Assembly: GCA_032718865.1 (NCBI GenBank)
Contig: JALUTQ010000001.1
Location: 1,674,001-1,738,000 of the forward strand
Source: Tilletia caries
Taxonomy: Eukaryota > Basidiomycota > Exobasidiomycetes > Tilletiales > Tilletiaceae
Direction: 5' to 3'
DNA: 64,000 bases
The notes below the pieces were generated by a model that did no database searches, had not been told where the DNA came from, and saw only the letters and a list, made by a program, of their open reading frames with translations. Shown piece after piece: positions 26,646 to 35,076 of the stretch (its first letter is position 1; each line of letters begins with the position of its first letter). The translations under genes and the position numbers were made by a program.

Positions 26646-26944
26646 TCAATCCCCATCCTCCAACCCCCCACCAACCCCATCCAAAACAGCCCCCCCAGGA
26701 ACACACCCGCCCAACCCATGCGCCTCCAAAGTCCACCCAGCCCCCTCCCCGCCCTCCCCCGCCTCAAACGCAAAAATAGCAAGCCGGAGCTCCTCAGGAC
26801 TCGGTTTGGCCGCGATCACGTCCACGCGTACGCCTTCGTGGCCCAAGTTCTCGATGATCCAGCGGGCTGTCGTTGGGCCGAGGGTGGCGATGCGCGGGTA
26901 GAGAGGCGGTGGTGGCGGTGGTGGGGCTGAGTTGCCCGGTGTCG

Positions 26945-26975
<31 letters not shown>

Positions 26976-29027
26976 GATTCGGAGACCGTTCGTTGACGCA
27001 ACTGGGCTCTCAGCTCGCGACTCCCCACCCCGAGCAACCCCATCTCCAACACGGACCGTGTCCTCATTCCCTCCCGCCGGCGGCAACCACGCCTGCCTCC
27101 TCAACGTCTCCAGCGCATACTTCACCCCACTCGGCGAAAAGAAGACAAGCCAATCAGGCCTCACACCAGCCAAAGAAGGCGCATGCTGTTGCAGCGTGCT
27201 CCCGCTCAGAGTACTGCCGCCGCTGGCCCCGATGCTCAGTCTCCGCAGGTCCAAGCGCGGGGAGGGCATCGCGCTGCCGGCGGGACTGGGGGTGAAGGCG
27301 CTCGGTGAGGCGATAATGTTGCTCATGGAGAGGTTGAGCGGTTCGGGGCGGGAGGACCAACCTGTTGAGGACGCGCGTTCCCTTACGTCGGAAGAATGTA
27401 CCGACGCCGACGTCTCGCCGGGCCCACTCTCTCGCTCCCCACCACTACCACCAGCGAACGACGAAGCCCGATCACGAACGACCGACCCGTCCCCCACTGA
27501 CGCCGACGCCGACGCCGACGATTCCCGACTGGCATCATCCCCCACCGCAAGCTGGCCCATCTGCTGCTGCTGCTGCGCAGCAGCAGCCCGATCAGCCTCC
27601 AACTGCCACTCCCTCGCATTCCTTGCCGCCCTGCGCGCCGCCGCAATGGCGCGTACCTGCTGTCGCCCCTGTAACCTCGCAATCTCCTCGGCGGAGAGGG
27701 TAGCGGTGCCCATGGCCCAGCCGTCCCGCGTCTCCGATGCGGGCGCGGGTGCATCCCCGACGACTGTGCTCGCTGAGGTCGAAGCTGTGAGCGAGCTCGA
27801 GCCCGAGCCCGAAGCCGAGGCTGAAGCTGAAGCGGAAGTCGAAGCCCATGACCCACTAGGTCGCCGACTGGAACGACTACTGCTCCTCCTGCTGAGGGCA
27901 ATACCGCGTGCCCTCGCCAGGAGGGAGAACAGCGAGTCCACATTGGCGCTGAAGTGCGGGTCTACGCCGGTCTCGTACACGCGCATGGTCTCGAATGGGA
28001 TCGGGTGCGGTTTCGCTGTGGAGAGGATGTGGGGCAGGTTCGGCAGGGCTTTGTCGCCCTGTAGGACGAGGAGTGGGTTGGAGATTGCGTAGGCCTGTGG
28101 TCGGAGCGAGGAAGTCGATTCTCCTTTTGTCCCGTCAGTGTTTTCTTCGCCGTCATCATCGCCTGGCTGGCAATCGAAGAAGTTGAGGATGAATCGGCCG
28201 AGCATGTCTGCGGTCCCTGTGCTTTTGCCGCCGAGAATGACTTTAGGCTTGATGGGATTGGACGCAGCGGCGACGGAAGCAGACGAAACTTTCGACCCGA
28301 GCGGCGGACCGATGACGATCTTCTTAAGCGCGGTGGAAGTAGCCGGACCGACAGCGAAGAAGGGGATCCGACTCCATACGGTGGTAGTCCTGGGCAAGCG
28401 CAACTCGTTCGGTCTGCGCTCGAAGTCCAGGCGCTCGTACTCGCACACGGTCTGATGGGTGATAGAGACGAGCGCCTCTGCCCAGGCCTGTACGGCGCGT
28501 TGTGAGGTACATACGACGCCTGCCCACTGGCGATTGAGGAAGGCGCCGACGAGCGGGGACTGGTTGCAGCTGACGGAGGCGAGGACGGGGATGGAGCTCA
28601 CTGTGAACTCGGTAGTCTCGATCGTCGGTCTCCGGGGAGGCACAGCGGACGATGCTCTGGAGCGGGAGGAGGAGGAGGAGGAGGCTGCTGCTGTGGTGGT
28701 GGGGGACGGGGGAGCGCTGGACTGGCTATCTGCGGAGTCGGCTATGCTGAGTGCGTCGTCTTCGAGGTTGCTGTTGTTGTGGGTGAGGATGTGGAGGTGG
28801 TGGGTGGTGAGCATGGGGTTGGAGGGTGGTGGTCTTGGCTTCCTGGAGGGGAGGCCGCTTGATGTGAGAGCGACGGGTGCGAGCGGTGTTGATGTTCCTG
28901 ACTCGAGGGCGGAGACGGGGAAGGAGGGGAGGCAGAAGGGACCGAAGGCGTCGTGCCAGGGGTCTGTGCCCTGGGAGGACGGCACGGGGCTGCGGAAGAG
29001 GACGACGGAGAGCAGCTTGAGCGGCAT
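26646..29027 (-). CDS. HEM4: Uroporphyrinogen-III synthase with long Ser-rich inserts
   Basis: Fourth enzyme of heme biosynthesis: cyclises hydroxymethylbilane to uroporphyrinogen III in the cytosol. A single 793-residue exon. Family motifs are spread out: WAGVVCTSQRAVQAW (about 165-180), FFAVGPATSTALKK, VILGGKSTGTADML, PIPFETMRVYETG (about 340), then DWLVFFSPSGVKYALETL (about 620) and RIATLGPTTARWIIENLG with VDVIAAKPSPEEL (about 705-735). The usual enzyme is about 260-300 residues; here roughly 240 low-complexity residues (Ser/Ala-rich, about 377-620) separate the two halves and another Gly/Thr/Pro-rich insert (poly-Thr) comes later. No intron is needed. Active-site residues are not well conserved in this family, so activity rests on overall motif order. 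Confidence 0.88.
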
Positions 29028-29358
29028 CGCTTTCTTGTTCTGCAGTGTGCAGCGTGGAGCGTGATGTGATGGTTGCGCTGATGGGAAGCTGTGTTGCGCG
29101 ATGAGAAAATGTGCACAGACGTTGTTTGCTCAGACGACCAGCCGACGCACTGTGGATGAGCGATGAGCAGTAGCCAGCGTTCAGGGATTGCGTTGGAGCG
29201 CGCAGAGCAGATCGCTGGCTGGGGACGCGACGCTATCGACAACCGTGACTGTGCGAGCGAAGTGAGTAGTGAGTGAGTCACGCAGGTCCAAGGGCGAGCG
29301 AGCGAGTGAGTGAGTGAGTGAGGGAGTGGTGTTGGGATGTGCTCTCCTATGGATGCGG

Positions 29359-29426
29359 TATGGAACGCCGTTTCGGCCACCTCATCAACAACCACGATCA
29401 ACAACCAACGACCATCGACCATGAGC
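29359..29426 (+). repeat. Left 68-bp terminal inverted repeat
   Basis: Begins TATGGAACGCCGTTTCGGCC and ends CCATCGACCATGAGC; 67 of 68 bases match the reverse complement of 35009-35076 (difference C versus T at base 25). It contains an ATG at 29360 opening a frame MERRFGHLINNHDQQ that runs 38 codons into a GTGAGT donor at 29474. Confidence 0.93.
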
Positions 29427-30057
29427 CCAAGCGAGAAGGAACAGCCAGCAGGGATCAGTCTCGATCACAAGCAGTGAGTATGAGCTCTTGCTCCTCCCTC
29501 TCCGCTGCACCAGCGACGCCCCAAGCTCGAGTTCCAAGACTGATCCTCGATGGCCCTCTTGTACAGACTACAGATTGATCACCAGACACATTTTGCAGAA
29601 TGAAATGCACGGCCTGCGCGGTGGAGAGCAGCGCATCTCAGTCTCTGCCTTGAAGACGACGCGCTGGTCCCCTATGCTTCTCCGGCGCGCTGGTCCTCTA
29701 TGCTCTATGCTTCTCCTTCATAGCTGACGCATCTTTCTTGCCTCCCACCACATTCTTCTGCAATCGCCTACCCTTTACCACCCTTCTGACCACTCTTCCC
29801 TCGACCCTGCTGCTGGTACGGCTCATCGTTCTTCTTCACGGTCCTCTTCTCCCTCTGCTTCACGTCCTCCATTGCTGCTCACTCGTCAGCCTGTCCGTCG
29901 GCCGCGTCCATCTCAACTCTCAAGTCAACATCAGGTGAATCTTGTTTGTTCTGTGTGTCCCTTACCTTACAGACTCACCGTGCCCCACTAACACTCACTA
30001 CTCTCTCCGCCTGTATTCTAGCCTCTGCAGGCTGCAACAGGTAGCTTCCTCGTCAAA

Positions 30058-32675
30058 ATGAGCACCAGGTACAGCAACGACAATGAATACGATGATATTG
30101 CTAATCTCATGACGTCTGGACACAGCGACGTGAGTATATCCTCTAACCTCCCCCCACCTCATGCTGTTCACCATGCCACAATGCTGGAGTCTCTTATTCA
30201 CTTACGCACACAACCCATTTTCAATCTCAGAATTCTTTCCAAAGCGGCAACGACATGCGAGGGTCTCGGTACGAACGCTCTTCTCCTCTGCCTCGTCGCG
30301 ACACGCACAGTTCATGCATGGGATGCGAGTCCCTCACGAGGGAGGTGGATTCCTTGCGTACAACTGTCGTCACCCTTGTCTCTCGGATTGAGACTCTAGA
30401 ACAGACCTCTCAACTGTTTCCACAGAGTGAGCGAGAGATGGGAAAGTCTGGTGAGTATCTATGGACTGTGTTCTGCGAATGAGTAAGTCTTATGTGTTCT
30501 TATAGCAACCTCTACATCCCTGTAGCAGTGCGCAGTTTGTCTCCTGGTGGTCTCGGGTACGCCGACTCACGTCCGCGCGTGGGGTCTTCCTCGTCTTACG
30601 GGCAGATGGGTGCCGGATCTTCGCGTCTTGGATTCATTGCACCACGCCCAGTTTCTACCAGCGCTGCAGCTAGTTTGTCTGCCCGTCTGCATAAATCTAC
30701 AGGCGGCATACGCACCGCAGCAGCCAAAGCGTCAGCATCAAGCTCTCCCTCAGTGCCATCGTTCAAAGACACCGTTAACCTCACTGACGGCGTCACTCTC
30801 GTCAAAGATCGACGACTTCTGGACCAGTCGATTGCTTCTCACACTGCCAATCGAGTGTTCAAAGATATCACGGAGCGGGAGAGACTTCAGGCATTTCCTG
30901 TCATCGGGAAAGGCTTCAATGCCGTACAAGTGTACAATGCCATCATCGAAGCCTTTCGCAAACAGAATCACGACCTAGTACGCGACGGTCAGAAGGGCTA
31001 CGAGTGAGTCTACACTTCCGCACAGCGTTTACAGCTGTTGCCTCTTGACAACACTATGATCGTCATTGCTCAGTATGTCATTCTCTATCTCCATCGTCTT
31101 CAGATTCTGTCGCCTGTTGAATCATTCCGCTCGATTGCAGACCCTCCGGTCTGATCCACCCAGTATTGCACTCACGGGAGTCGAGCTGGCCACAGAATAC
31201 AAACGAAACAAGTGCTTCATTGTCGTGCGTTCAGACAAGAAATTCGACAAGTACGACCCACTCCTCCATCAGCTCCTCGGTACCTCTGTGGACGACGACA
31301 GTCCTTTCGAATCGGCCGATGATAGCGACATCGACTTACCAGATATCACTCAAAGCGACCGCGCCTGGAAGAAGTGCGCGTTTTTGCAAGGAGCTCATCG
31401 GTATCAAAGAGCACGCGGCTCACGAATATGAATGTGGTATAGAATGGAAGACTCAAAAGGTTTGTGCCTCGTGAGACTTCACATATTGATCTTATGGCTA
31501 GTGCTGATCATGACTTCTCTCTTTTTCTCAATCAAGGATCTTCGCAAAGAACTTGAAGACCTCCGCAAGCAACGTGTCGCCGTGAAGGAGGAAGCAGAGA
31601 CGGCAGCCGCGGCTTTGAACGAAGCAAACTCTCTTCCCAAAGGTTCTGTTTCCCTGCAGCCTCCCGCCGGTAGCTGCGCGTGTGGCGAGGCGGATGCGGG
31701 TGAGGTACGTGGTCGCCCCTTTCATTCAATGTGATATTCGTTCTGTTCATGATCTTCTTTTGCATTACAGATGGTGGGTTGTGACGGAGCAGACTGCGAA
31801 GTCTGGCGCCATAAGAATTGCACCGAAGCTTTCCAGGGTTGGACCAGTCCCGAGAACGACTGGTACTGCTCTTTTGGCTGTCTCAAAAGAGTCTCTTCAG
31901 CCGCGCATGTTGTGAACATTCTACCACTATACTAAAAGGTGAGACCAGTCTCAACCCAAGTGTCATGGATGATGCATATATCCAACACTCCCTCTCATCA
32001 TCATGACCCTTTGGTCTGAGACGCGAGACCCCATAGGACTAGGGGTGAGACTCTTTCGGCCCGGAGTACCCGGAGCACGTGCTGTGGAAAACCCGACAAG
32101 CACCCGACAAGAAAATGGTCGGAAAAGAAGTCTGGAGATACCGGGAATCGAACTCACGACAGAGTCGATCAGACTCTTAATCTGTTGTGAACATTCTACC
32201 ACTATACTAAAAGGTGAGACCAGTCTCAACCCAAGTGTCATGGATGATGCATATATCCAACACTCCCTCTCATCATCATGACCCTTTGGTCTGAGACGCG
32301 AGACCCCATAGGACTAGGGGTGAGACTCTTTCGGCCCGGAGTACCCGGCGCACGTGCTGTGGAAAACCCGACAAGCACCCGACAAGAAAATGGTCGGAAA
32401 AGAAGTCTGGAGATACCGGGAATCGAACTCACGACAGAGTCGATCAGACTCTTAATCTGTTGTGAACATTCTACCACTATACTAAAAGGTGAGACCAGTC
32501 TCAACCCAAGTGTCATGGATGATGCATATATCCAACAGCGCATACCACGTCTGACGTTCTCCCCACGTCTGCTACTGATGCTGATGTGCCGCAGGCGACG
32601 AAGAGTCCCACCAAGCGAGCAAGCAGTTCCAACGCCCCTGCACAGCGATCAAGTACTCGTGTGCGCCGAACCTGA
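30058..32675 (+). pseudogene. Broken zinc-finger/PHD gene of the TIR element
   Basis: Exons 30058-30129, 30231-30450, 30526-31003, 31074-31459 (or from 31104), 31537-31704 and 31771 onward. The product would have a coiled-coil-like segment with CMGC, a middle region (VFKDITERERLQAFPVIGKG), a C2HC-like finger (CAFCKELIGIKEHAAHEYEC), a Glu/Lys/Ala coiled coil and a PHD finger (CACG, CDGADC, HKNC, WYCSFGC). Two lesions: a T5 run at 31381-31385 puts the finger out of frame (one T fewer restores it and makes exon 4 end in the right phase), and an LTR element inserted after 31907 adds nine foreign residues and a stop at 31933. The frame resumes exactly after the duplicated target at 32543 and ends at TGA 32673-32675. 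Role unknown; its pairing with an integrase suggests an accessory DNA- or chromatin-binding factor. Confidence 0.75.
31908..32537 (-). mobile_element. Tandem miniature LTR element (TRIM-like), three LTRs
   Basis: Three 80-bp LTRs (31908-31987, 32183-32262, 32458-32537), each TGTTG...CAACA, alternate with two 195-bp internal parts, giving a 275-bp period. The two full units differ by about one base (near 32070/32345). A 5-bp target duplication GCGCA flanks the whole (31903-31907 and 32538-32542). Read on the minus strand, a polypurine tract GATGATGAGAGGGAG directly precedes the downstream LTR, fitting a non-autonomous LTR retroelement. There is no coding capacity. A tRNA-like segment spans each LTR/internal border (A box TAGTATAGTGG in the LTR, B box GTTCGATTCC in the internal part). 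No canonical TGG primer-binding site follows the LTR. A tRNA-derived SINE tandem is the alternative reading. Confidence 0.8.
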
Positions 32676-32728
32676 CGTGAGTGAAGTTTGGGTTGTTCTT
32701 CTGATTTGTCATAATGCCGAGCAATCTA

Positions 32729-34528
32729 CTAGATAAGGTCATTGATAGCATCCAACACATCTAGGTATGCGGTCAAGCCAAAATCTGCGGGAGGGGGAAA
32801 CGGCGGATAAGGGAGGAGGAGTCGAAGAGCCGCGTGGGTGCTGGGCTCATTCAGCACCGGAGGAACCCACTCGCTGATTCGGTCGACGCGCACATGGGGT
32901 TGCTCGCCCTGTCTCTCAGATCGCCATCCGTCTAGACCGTAATCCTCCCAGCCCTCAATGTCGAGTCCAACCTCCTGCATAGCTGCCCTCTCCGCCATAT
33001 CGAGTAACCCAACATCGTAGCCGCGTCGAGCAGCGTCCCATGCCCCTTCAGAAATGAATATGTGTTCAGAGTCAGTGTGTCTGTTCTCTGATGTGTAACG
33101 ATTCGCTCTGACAGTACTAACCTTGGAGAAACATCTGTTCGGGTGTCTGATTACCCAGGCCCGGTGTCCGCATCTTGTGATTGTTCCACATGCGAACGAA
33201 GTGCTCGAGGGCGCCATTCAGCTGCGGGAGAAAGACGAAGTGCAGAGCCCACAGATGCACATCGCAATCAACGTCTAGGACTCTCATCTCCTCCAGGTGT
33301 TCAAACCATGCTCTGTATTTTTTGGTCGTCCATTTCTGTACGTCGACCCACAGACGCTCAATCCTCTGATTTCGCGTAGAGGGACCTTGAATGAAAGACC
33401 CTCGACCGAAACCTACACGGCCCAAGTGTGAGGGTTGAGAAGTTCAAGTGTGATCAATGACAATTGTAAGGACAGACGACGGTGTGTGAACAGCAGATAC
33501 GCACCTCGGTATTCTTCCATCAACTTAAGAACACCCATGTTCTCCCCGCCATGGTCTCCTCGTACCCTGCTGGGCCATCCGCGAGCTTGAACGGCCTCGA
33601 GGAAGAGAGCTGCGACAGTGTTGGCTCGATTGTTGCTACTTGCGCGCAAGAAAGTAACGAGCCTGGACTTCCCGTCGATCGCTCCATGTATAACAATATT
33701 CCACTTCATAAGTTTGTGGTGGCCGTCCACGTGCCACAAGGAATTTACGAAAGGCACGTAGTACTGCCGACGTTTGAGGTGCCGCGCCCATCGGGGATTC
33801 TGTGAGATAGGGTCCGTAGCCTGCACGATTCGCCGCAGACGTGCCCGGCTGATCCTCAGTCCTTGACTGCGCAGAGCACCCCACGTGCCTCGCTCGCCGA
33901 CGTCCTCACTGTGCATTGTCTGTAGCTGGGTTATGATCTGAGAGGAGTGAAGTGGAGAGTTGGAGTCAGACCTAACCATAAAACAGGTCACAGGAGTCGT
34001 CCTGCGCATCAATCACCAAGACTCGCTACTCACGCTGCTCAACTCCTCATCGGACAAGTCTCGATCATTCCACCGTTGCAGGTCCAGCTCGACCCTGCGC
34101 CTGCGCAAAGTCCGCTCCGAACACCCTAGAAATAGGGCGCTATCTTTGTCCGAGAAGCCGAGCTCGAGAAGCTCGATCAGAAGATCGACGGGCAAATGAA
34201 TCTTCATCTGTCCGGCCTCCGTCCTAACCCATTCGCGAGAGGCAGTGGCAGCGTCCTCTTCTATGTGTCCCGCGCGTTTGATTTCGTGCAAGCGTGCCTC
34301 GAGACAGAGGATGGGCTGAACGATAGCATCAAAGACTCGTGGGTGGATTTTGTTGGCCATGAGATGCAATGACACCAACAGCTCCTCGACTGACAGCATA
34401 TGTGTCAGGAGCGCAGTCTCCGAGTGTATCGCGCTGCCGATAAATGAGGTGATGGGGCCGAGGAGGGCGTAGATATCCAGTCGCAGCTCAGCAATCTCTG
34501 CGGCATCCATCGAAGAGGGAGGAGACAT
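32729..34528 (-). CDS. DD34E integrase/transposase of the TIR element
   Basis: Likely strand-transfer enzyme of the surrounding element. Exons 34528-34034, 33937-33505, 33412-33122 and 33045-32729 give 511 intact residues. Seen: an N-terminal helical part, a helix-turn-helix (LLIELLELGFSDKDSALFLG then CSERTLRRRR), a linker (GTWGALRSQGLRISRARLRR), then the RNase-H-like core: NSLWHVDGHHKLMKW with the first Asp, AIDGKSR, RVRGDHGGEN with the second Asp, and NQRIERLW with the Glu exactly 34 residues after that Asp. The C-terminal part (HFVFLPQLNGALEHFVRMWN, LGNQTPEQMFLQG) matches the 'integrase core domain' proteins found in basidiomycetes and fishes. The start at 34528 is the first solid ATG; leader exons reaching the right terminal repeat are possible. 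Confidence 0.88.
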
Positions 34529-35008
34529 GCGATTTGCGAAAGACGAGGATGTGAACCGCAAACGTAAAGGTGAGACGGTGGGCTGCAGAGGGCCTGGGAC
34601 GTGCCGAGAAGCGCAAGCGAAAATGGATGTGATCAAGAGTGCTGTATGAATATGATACGCAGTGAAAAGACAGTTGTCAGTGGCAGCAGTTTCAAAATGA
34701 GAGTGCGGATGTATCATGTACTGACCAGGCTGATGGGGAGTGAGCACGAAGAAGGAAGGTACTGAGAGCAGTGGCGGCGGCGGCGCAGCAACGAGGAGGG
34801 CGGCAGCGAGCGCAGCGACGAGAAGGGCAGCGAGCGCAGCGGTTGCTGTTGAGGCGTCTAACCACGAATAAAAGGGAGTCAGAATCGTGAAATTTGCGCA
34901 GTACAAGCGGCGAAGAACAAGAAAGAGAGAGGGGGAGGTACTGGGAGAGAAGAAGCGCACTCACCTGTATGTATTTGTCGCTCAATGCTTGACTATGGCA
35001 GCGGTTCT

Positions 35009-35076
35009 GCTCATGGTCGATGGTCGTTGGTTGTTGATCGTGGTTGTTGATAAGGTGGCCGAAACGGCGTTCCATA
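35009..35076 (-). repeat. Right 68-bp terminal inverted repeat
   Basis: Reverse complement of the left repeat. On the minus strand its ATG (35075) opens the same peptide start and reads 37 codons to a GTGAGT donor at 34964, pointing toward the integrase gene. Confidence 0.93.

What the first reader, a model, noticed from the sequence alone, without database searches (positions are those of the whole stretch)
29359..35076. Unplaced transposon: 68-bp TIRs, DD34E integrase and a convergent C2HC/PHD partner gene
Seen: near-perfect 68-bp inverted ends, an intact four-exon integrase with Asp, Asp and Glu in DD34E spacing plus an N-terminal helix-turn-helix, and a second gene with a C2HC-like finger, coiled coil and PHD finger that ends tail-to-tail with the integrase. 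Known: the integrase resembles the 'integrase core domain' group scattered in basidiomycetes and fishes, usually annotated without element borders. Inference: this copy defines a complete two-gene transposon in which a chromatin-reading PHD protein partners the integrase. I know of no named superfamily with this gene pair.
Basis: partly seen in the sequence, partly recalled or inferred. Interest (0 to 1): 0.9.

Follow-up and report, generated by a model that had tools for sequence, protein, structure and literature searches.

The report
IS3EU transposon with PHD-finger partner gene
This is a complete-ended, recently mobile DNA transposon of a wheat bunt fungus, belonging to the known IS3EU group, and it carries tail-to-tail with its integrase a second gene for a zinc-finger protein of the kind that reads chromatin marks, a layout that resembles the ancestor of our own RAG1/RAG2 immune genes.

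Summary
In detail: window 29359-35076 is a 5,718-bp transposon with 68-bp TIRs (1 mismatch), an intact 511-aa DD34E integrase (PF24764) and a convergent partner gene. It is not unplaced: TATGG..CCATA ends, long TIRs and 6-bp target duplications are the published diagnosis of IS3EU. Host: Tilletia caries TC1_MSG, by matching contig lengths. The genome holds a second full copy, six 1.9-kb gene-less copies and a truncated end; 7 of 8 paired copies have exact 6-bp duplications (the window copy has none). The terminal 15-mer occurs 155 times (reversed control 1).

The window copy's partner is broken (frameshift, inserted repeat); the sister copy keeps a 520-aa partner (coiled coil, core, C2HC finger, ING-like PHD) but a frameshifted integrase. 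A homologous partner lies beside 16 of 39 integrase loci, 16 of 16 tail-to-tail. Core and C2HC finger recur; a PHD-like finger occurs in some families, not in family B. The layout parallels RAG-like transposons without kinship. Searches found no report of a PHD partner for IS3EU. Chromatin targeting is inference; an insertion-site test was only suggestive. Verdict: known superfamily, new two-gene variant.

The parts
29359..29426 (+). left terminal inverted repeat (68 bp, TATGGAACGCCGTTT...)
   Evidence: 17 hits of this end in the genome
35009..35076 (-). right terminal inverted repeat, 1 mismatch to the left one; flanks ATGCGG / GAACTC do not match, so no TSD at this copy
32729..34528 (-). integrase gene, exons 34528-34034, 33937-33505, 33412-33122, 33045-32729; 511 aa, intact
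   Evidence: (PF24764 E 3e-71)
34094..34195 (-). N-terminal helix-turn-helix-like stretch, residues 112-145
   Evidence: weak Pfam HTH hits E 0.04-0.1; helices in the AF2 model of the near-identical P0001
33357..33727 (-). catalytic residues D236 (33727-33725), D293 (33556-33554), E328 (33359-33357), DD34E
   Evidence: model resembles retroviral integrases
30058..32675 (+). partner gene: exons 30058-30129, 30231-30450, 30526-31003, 31104-31459, 31537-31704, 31771 on; interrupted by the repeat 31909-32537, tail to 32675; stops after 365 aa in this copy
   Evidence: 520-aa open version in sister copy C1:231802-236885
31375..31435 (+). C2HC-like finger of the partner (CxxC..H..C), hit by the 1-base frameshift in this copy
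31675..31881 (+). ING-like PHD finger, split over exons 5 and 6 (31675-31704, 31771-31881)
31909..32537 (+). dispersed 275-bp repeat (two units plus an 80-bp part) inserted in partner exon 6, flanked by GCGCAT at 31903-31908 and 32538-32543

Best explanation
An IS3EU-superfamily cut-and-paste DNA transposon of Tilletia caries. SHOWN from sequence: bordered element, multi-copy, 6-bp TSDs at most copies tested, DD34E integrase-like transposase, convergent partner gene homologous between diverged IS3EU families of this genome. INFERRED: the integrase binds the shared 15-bp terminus and TIR, excises the element and joins it to staggered target cuts 6 bp apart; it acts in trans on the 1.9-kb gene-less copies. 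The partner is an accessory subunit: its core domain and C2HC finger contact the transpososome or DNA, and its C-terminal ING-like PHD finger tethers the complex to histone H3 tails of active chromatin, much as RAG2 serves RAG1. The C-terminal part is exchangeable between families.
For: TIR: 17 ends = 8 paired elements + 1 truncated end; exact 6-bp TSD at 7 of 8. Other families: B (9,097 bp, TIR 64, TSD GGTTTC), C (6,011 bp, TIR 61, CCACAC), D (4,894 bp, TIR 59, CACCTG), D2 (4,514 bp, TIR 46, GTATCG). Of 10 further elements chosen from the listed end pairs, 6 have an exact 6-bp TSD, 1 a 7-bp repeat, 3 neither. Terminal 15-mer: 155 hits, reversed control 1; 43 inward pairs among the 100 ends listed. 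Published IS3EU diagnosis: 6-bp TSD, TIR over 30 bp, TAYGG..CCRTA (PMC12730594; PMC10045372). Integrase PF24764; relatives in Tilletia, Tremellales, Tulasnella, corals, fishes (288 hits, best 120 listed); fold nearest retroviral integrases. Partner: convergent match beside 16 of 39 integrase loci, 16 of 16 tail-to-tail (loci merged by me); C vs D BLASTP 5e-49; T. indica A-type vs D 8e-7; profile-profile E 7e-6 over core + C2HC + PHD; T. indica homologue 52% over its whole length. PHD like ING4, E 3.5e-7. Partner pN/pS, family-B copies C36 vs C27: 0.24 and 0.6 by exon; integrase 0.26, 0.35, 0.19 (few changes).
Against: No Repbase IS3EU protein could be compared, so the transposase phylogeny is untested. 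The window copy lacks a TSD and its partner is broken; the sister copy's integrase is frameshifted: neither full copy has both genes open (both frameshifts sit in homopolymers of a Nanopore/Illumina assembly, so may be errors; open versions of both proteins exist in public Tilletia records). 23 of 39 integrase loci gave no partner match; family B's partner shows no PHD. The PHD in C/D types is weak (Pfam 9.7 bits for D, none for C; ING3 E 0.27). Of the ING cage residues (recalled) M and W align but the Tyr does not. Insertion near starts of outward-reading ORFs: 6 of 8 vs 44% of random points (P 0.08), both sides 3 of 8 vs 7% (P 0.016), uncorrected; ORFs ending toward the element also occur at 4 of 8. 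No empty site shown.
Confidence: 0.85

Rival explanations
1. IS3EU element whose partner is only a captured or passenger gene with no role in transposition, carried along like the TET/JBP genes in rust IS3EU.
For: Rust IS3EU families carry TET and alpha-kinase genes, and TET genes move between transposons (PMC12730594); family B shows no PHD; 23 of 39 integrase loci had no partner match.
Against: Homologous partner in five diverged families (A, B, C, D, D2), convergent in 16 of 16, an apparently shared intron after GYE in A and B, collinear core + C2HC; pN/pS below 1 in C36 vs C27.
Confidence: 0.25
2. The partner is an anti-silencing or transcription factor of the element (acting on the element's own chromatin) rather than a targeting subunit.
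For: Coiled coil, C2HC and PHD fingers fit a chromatin protein; other fungal transposons carry TET dioxygenases thought to counter silencing (PMC12730594, abstract).
Against: No enzyme domain found by Pfam in A-, B-, C- or D-type partners; nothing here tests either role.
Confidence: 0.35
3. A truly new superfamily.
For: No paper found pairs IS3EU with PHD.
Against: Termini, TIR length, TSD and integrase class match published IS3EU.
Confidence: 0.03
4. A Polinton, Ginger or LTR-element fragment.
For: Integrase core resembles retroviral integrases; Polintons also make 6-bp TSDs (PMC10045372).
Against: TATGG..CCATA ends, 5-kb size, two genes only, no polymerase or other viral domain in Pfam scans of the two proteins; Ginger1 makes 4-bp TSDs.
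Confidence: 0.02

Closest known systems
IS3EU superfamily (Repbase; fungal members in Kojima 2025, PMC12730594)
   Same: 6-bp TSD, TIR over 30 bp, TAYGG..CCRTA ends, DDE transposase, another gene in opposite orientation to the transposase in the TET-bearing rust members
   Different: In those rust families the other genes are alpha-kinase and TET/JBP; here a coiled-coil/C2HC/PHD protein; no alpha-kinase hit in this genome (but no control genome rang either)
GingerRoot
   Same: Same lineage as IS3EU, 6-bp TSD, mostly TA..TA ends (PMC10045372)
   Different: Described from Selaginella; partner genes not compared here
RAG-like transposons / ProtoRAG (PMC7204232, passages)
   Same: DDE recombinase gene and convergent gene for a PHD-finger protein between TIRs
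   Different: RAG1-type recombinase, Kelch propeller in RAG2, 5-bp TSD; no sequence kinship claimed
ING-family PHD fingers (ING3, ING4, YNG1)
   Same: Best solved-structure matches of the A-type partner's finger, E 3.5e-7
   Different: The rest of the partner did not match ING proteins; one cage residue (recalled) not matched

Membership tests
IS3EU | 6-bp target site duplication | tested here: met
   exact at 7 of 8 family-A copies (window copy fails), 4 of 5 copies of families B/C/D/D2 (second B copy, on C5, fails), 6 of 10 others, one more with 7 bp
IS3EU | termini TAYGG..CCRTA and TIR longer than 30 bp | tested here: met
   TATGG..CCATA; TIR 68, 64, 61, 59, 46 bp; definition from PMC12730594
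IS3EU | DDE integrase-like transposase without HHCC zinc domain | tested here: met
   PF24764 E 3e-71, DD34E, HTH-like N-terminus, no zinc-binding integrase N-domain among Pfam hits to E 1
IS3EU | transposase clusters with Repbase IS3EU in a tree | not testable with these tools
   no Repbase sequences at hand
RAG-like transposon | convergent recombinase and PHD-protein genes between TIRs | tested here: met
RAG-like transposon | RAG1-type core, Kelch propeller, 5-bp TSD | tested here: not met
   PF24764 integrase core, no Kelch hit, 6-bp TSD
Ginger1 | HHCC domain and 4-bp TSD | tested here: not met
   definition from PMC10045372
Polinton | large element with polymerase and capsid genes (recalled) | tested here: not met
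   5.1-5.7 kb, two genes, neither with such a Pfam domain

The most novel reading that the evidence does not exclude
IS3EU in these fungi is a second, independently evolved RAG1/RAG2-like machine: a DDE integrase plus a tail-to-tail PHD chromatin reader that guides integration to marked promoters, with a conserved docking core + C2HC finger and a C-terminal effector swapped between families (ING-like PHD, diverged PHD, none; alpha-kinase in rusts if homologous).
Probability: 0.3. Interest if true: 0.82.

Novelty: new variant of a known kind. Interest (0 to 1): 0.6.

Why it matters
IS3EU is, in my judgement, a little-studied superfamily related to bacterial IS3/IS481. A conserved partner with a histone-reader type finger gives it a testable targeting subunit and a parallel to the RAG transposon, so one can ask whether transposase + PHD-reader pairs arise repeatedly. 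The published repeat annotation of this T. caries assembly counts 283 DNA-transposon pieces over 43 kb and names no IS3EU in the table passages I saw (PMC10684912), whereas the IS3EU terminal 15-mer alone occurs 155 times.

Tried and rejected
A promoter-targeting test gave 6 of 8 against 44% of random window points (P 0.08) and, for both sides, 3 of 8 against 7% (P 0.016); suggestive only, because ORFs in GC-rich DNA are a noisy proxy and the tests are uncorrected. AlphaFold of the partner from 2 sequences failed (pLDDT 31.7). Two partner searches of the 5.8-billion-protein database, each scoring only about 8,000 candidates, gave the same 2 homologues, both Tilletia, so spread beyond Tilletia is unknown. 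My recalled idea that the core resembles animal HECT proteins linked to such integrases is untested (IS3EU + HECT: 0 papers; the 7 HECT matches of this genome lie at none of the 39 integrase loci). Alpha-kinase: 0 matches, but no control genome rang. Viral contigs: 21 pattern matches, none a relative. A tRNA in the 275-bp repeat looked likely by eye, but ARAGORN found none. A zinc-pattern scan for a PHD in family B found none, but the same pattern also missed the A-type finger, so the Pfam result (no family at E up to 5) carries that point. Empty sites were not sought.
Full report
WHAT IS THERE. Window 29359-35076 is bounded by 68-bp inverted repeats with one mismatch. Between them lie two genes ending tail-to-tail. 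On the minus strand is an integrase with four exons and GT..AG introns, 511 aa, D236/D293/E328 with 34 residues between D and E. Pfam gives PF24764 'rva_4, integrase core domain' at E 3e-71 and only weak HTH hits at residues 112-145. A 40-sequence AlphaFold model of the near-identical P0001 (pLDDT 79.7) is nearest to retroviral integrases in the PDB (RSV intasome E 7.7e-5, TM-score 0.25 by query length and 0.50 by target length). On the plus strand is the partner. In this copy it stops after 365 aa through a one-base difference in a T run near 31381, and a dispersed 275-bp repeat (two units plus an 80-bp part) interrupts its last exon.

COPIES. The TIR finds 17 places in the genome: 8 paired elements and one unpaired end on contig C40, beside TTAGGG repeats about 2 kb from the contig end. 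The second long copy (C1:231802-236885, 5,084 bp) lacks the repeat insert and is 99.3-99.5% identical; its partner is open for 520 aa but its integrase is frameshifted after 346 aa. Six copies of 1,874-1,921 bp share only about 170 bp (left) and 158-161 bp (right) with the long ones and are 97.6-99.95% identical to each other. Seven of eight copies have exact 6-bp duplications (AACGCC, AAATCG, CAACAA, TTCCAG, GTATAG, TGACAT, TTCATA); the window copy has none. Neither full copy has both genes open. Both frameshifts sit in homopolymers, and the assembly is Nanopore R9.4.1 polished with Illumina (PMC10684912, passages), so error is possible; public Tilletia records hold open versions of both proteins (P0001 integrase; P0121, which lacks the C-terminus, and T. 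indica P0122 for the partner).

HOST. Largest contig 2,689,501 and N50 1,798,756 of T. caries TC1_MSG (PMC10684912) equal the lengths of contigs C7 and C36 here. The closest protein is from T. caries, 99%.

WHICH SUPERFAMILY. Kojima 2025 (PMC12730594; part 1 of 7 of the text and passages seen) describes fungal IS3EU by 6-bp TSDs, TIRs over 30 bp and TAYGG..CCRTA. Kojima and Bao 2023 (PMC10045372; parts 1-3 of 5 read) add TA..TA ends, relation to GingerRoot and absence of the HHCC domain. What could be tested is met.

OTHER FAMILIES IN THE SAME GENOME. PF24764 gives 82 matches (a lower bound by the tool's own warning), which I merged by hand into 39 loci. Complete relatives: family B C36:546650-555746, 9,097 bp, TIR 64, TSD GGTTTC (a second copy on C5 shows no TSD); C C15:827824-833834; D C7:600515-605408; D2 C21:1036356-1040869, the last three with 6-bp TSDs. 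The left ends all begin TATGGAACGCCGTTT; the right end of C differs by one base there. That 15-mer occurs 82 + 73 times; its reversed control 0 + 1. Among the 100 ends listed, 43 inward pairs span 994-17,886 bp, 25 of them 1.5-2.1 kb; 14 ends are unpaired, and 11 of 39 integrase loci lie inside a listed pair. Of 10 further elements that I chose from the listed pairs, 6 have an exact 6-bp TSD, 1 a 7-bp repeat, 3 neither.

THE PARTNER IS CONSERVED. Searches with A-, B- and D-type partners place a match beside 16 of the 39 integrase loci: the window copy, C1:23, C36:55, C39:79, C11:8, C11:39, C5:2001, C27:288, C23:584, C7:602, C39:1151, C21, C10, C15, C40:647, C36:1241; 16 of 16 convergent. Partner matches at C25:810 and C32:27 have no integrase beside them (the nearest to the first is about 13 kb off), and C39:1543 matches the PHD stretch alone; 23 integrase loci, some of them fragments, gave no partner match. 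Across A, B, C and D a C-[FVY]-I-V motif in the core and a CxxC..H..C finger are invariant in the alignment; in A and B the reading frame breaks off at the same GYE, as if at a shared intron. C against D: BLASTP 5e-49; T. indica A-type against D: 8e-7; profiles: E 7e-6 over 196 columns through core, C2HC and PHD. C and D rows were joined from predicted exons, so their borders are approximate. The A-type finger is ING-like (ING4, E 3.5e-7 with the T. indica homologue; profile 1.5e-6 with ING3). In C and D it is PHD-like mainly by its Cys/His pattern (Pfam 9.7 bits for D, none for C; ING3 E 0.27 with the C/D profile). The family-B exon that follows the core shows no Pfam family at E up to 5. In B, C36 against C27, pN/pS is 0.24 and 0.6 in two partner exons and 0.26, 0.35, 0.19 in three integrase exons: constraint of similar order, on few changes. 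Between the other, nearly identical B copies the counts are too small and run from 0 to 1.2.

MECHANISM. Integrase-type cut-and-paste with 6-bp staggered joining follows from the family and the TSDs. The partner as a transpososome subunit with a chromatin-reading end is inference by analogy with RAG2, whose PHD sits in a gene convergent to RAG1 (PMC7204232, passages). The window copy lies between an outward-reading HEM4 gene (PF02602, E 3.6e-14) and an outward-reading 768-aa ORF without a Pfam hit over cut-off. Over 8 copies the excess of outward-reading ORF starts is weak (6 of 8 vs 44%, P 0.08; both sides 3 of 8 vs 7%, P 0.016).

NOVELTY. 'IS3EU' with 'PHD' returns one paper, unrelated by its title (listing); PHD has 0 occurrences in Kojima 2025's main text; Tilletia + transposon + PHD gives two genome papers (listings only); PHD finger + DNA transposon + integrase + transposase + fungi gives one Mutator paper (listing). 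Supplements and Repbase were not open to me. I therefore call it a new variant of a known kind.

Noticed in passing
window 31909-32537: 275-bp repeat with at least 113 matches in the genome, singly and in tandem arrays (e.g. C27:906702-912398); minus strand looks tRNA-like by eye but ARAGORN finds none; flanked here by GCGCAT on both sides.
   Followed up: partly
G000 whole genome: 155 copies of TATGGAACGCCGTTT; 25 of the 43 listed pairs are 1.5-2.1 kb apart, suggesting several gene-less IS3EU families.
   Followed up: partly
G000 C7:179855-197740, C4:512395-529206, C27:207860-219674: Very long IS3EU end pairs (11.8-17.9 kb); the C7 one holds an integrase match. Extra cargo or nested insertions not examined.
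   Followed up: no
L072, L068 and L059, C36:546650-550900: Family B carries over 4 kb more on the partner side, with minus-strand ORFs rich in Ala, Gln and Arg; content unidentified.
   Followed up: no
L016, contig C40, about 2 kb from its end: A family-A end without its mate lies beside TTAGGG repeats.
   Followed up: no
L014, left flank of the C5 short copy: Another IS3EU-type end (GGCGTTCCATA) lies 15 bp from this insertion, a possible hot spot or nested insertion.
   Followed up: no
L022/L046, C23:580995-586229: The family-B copy on C23 differs from the near-identical C11 copy by many one-base homopolymer gains at its end, which looks like assembly error.
   Followed up: no
window 26859-29129, minus strand: Uroporphyrinogen-III synthase (HEM4, PF02602 E 3.6e-14) gene reading away from the element.
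   Followed up: yes
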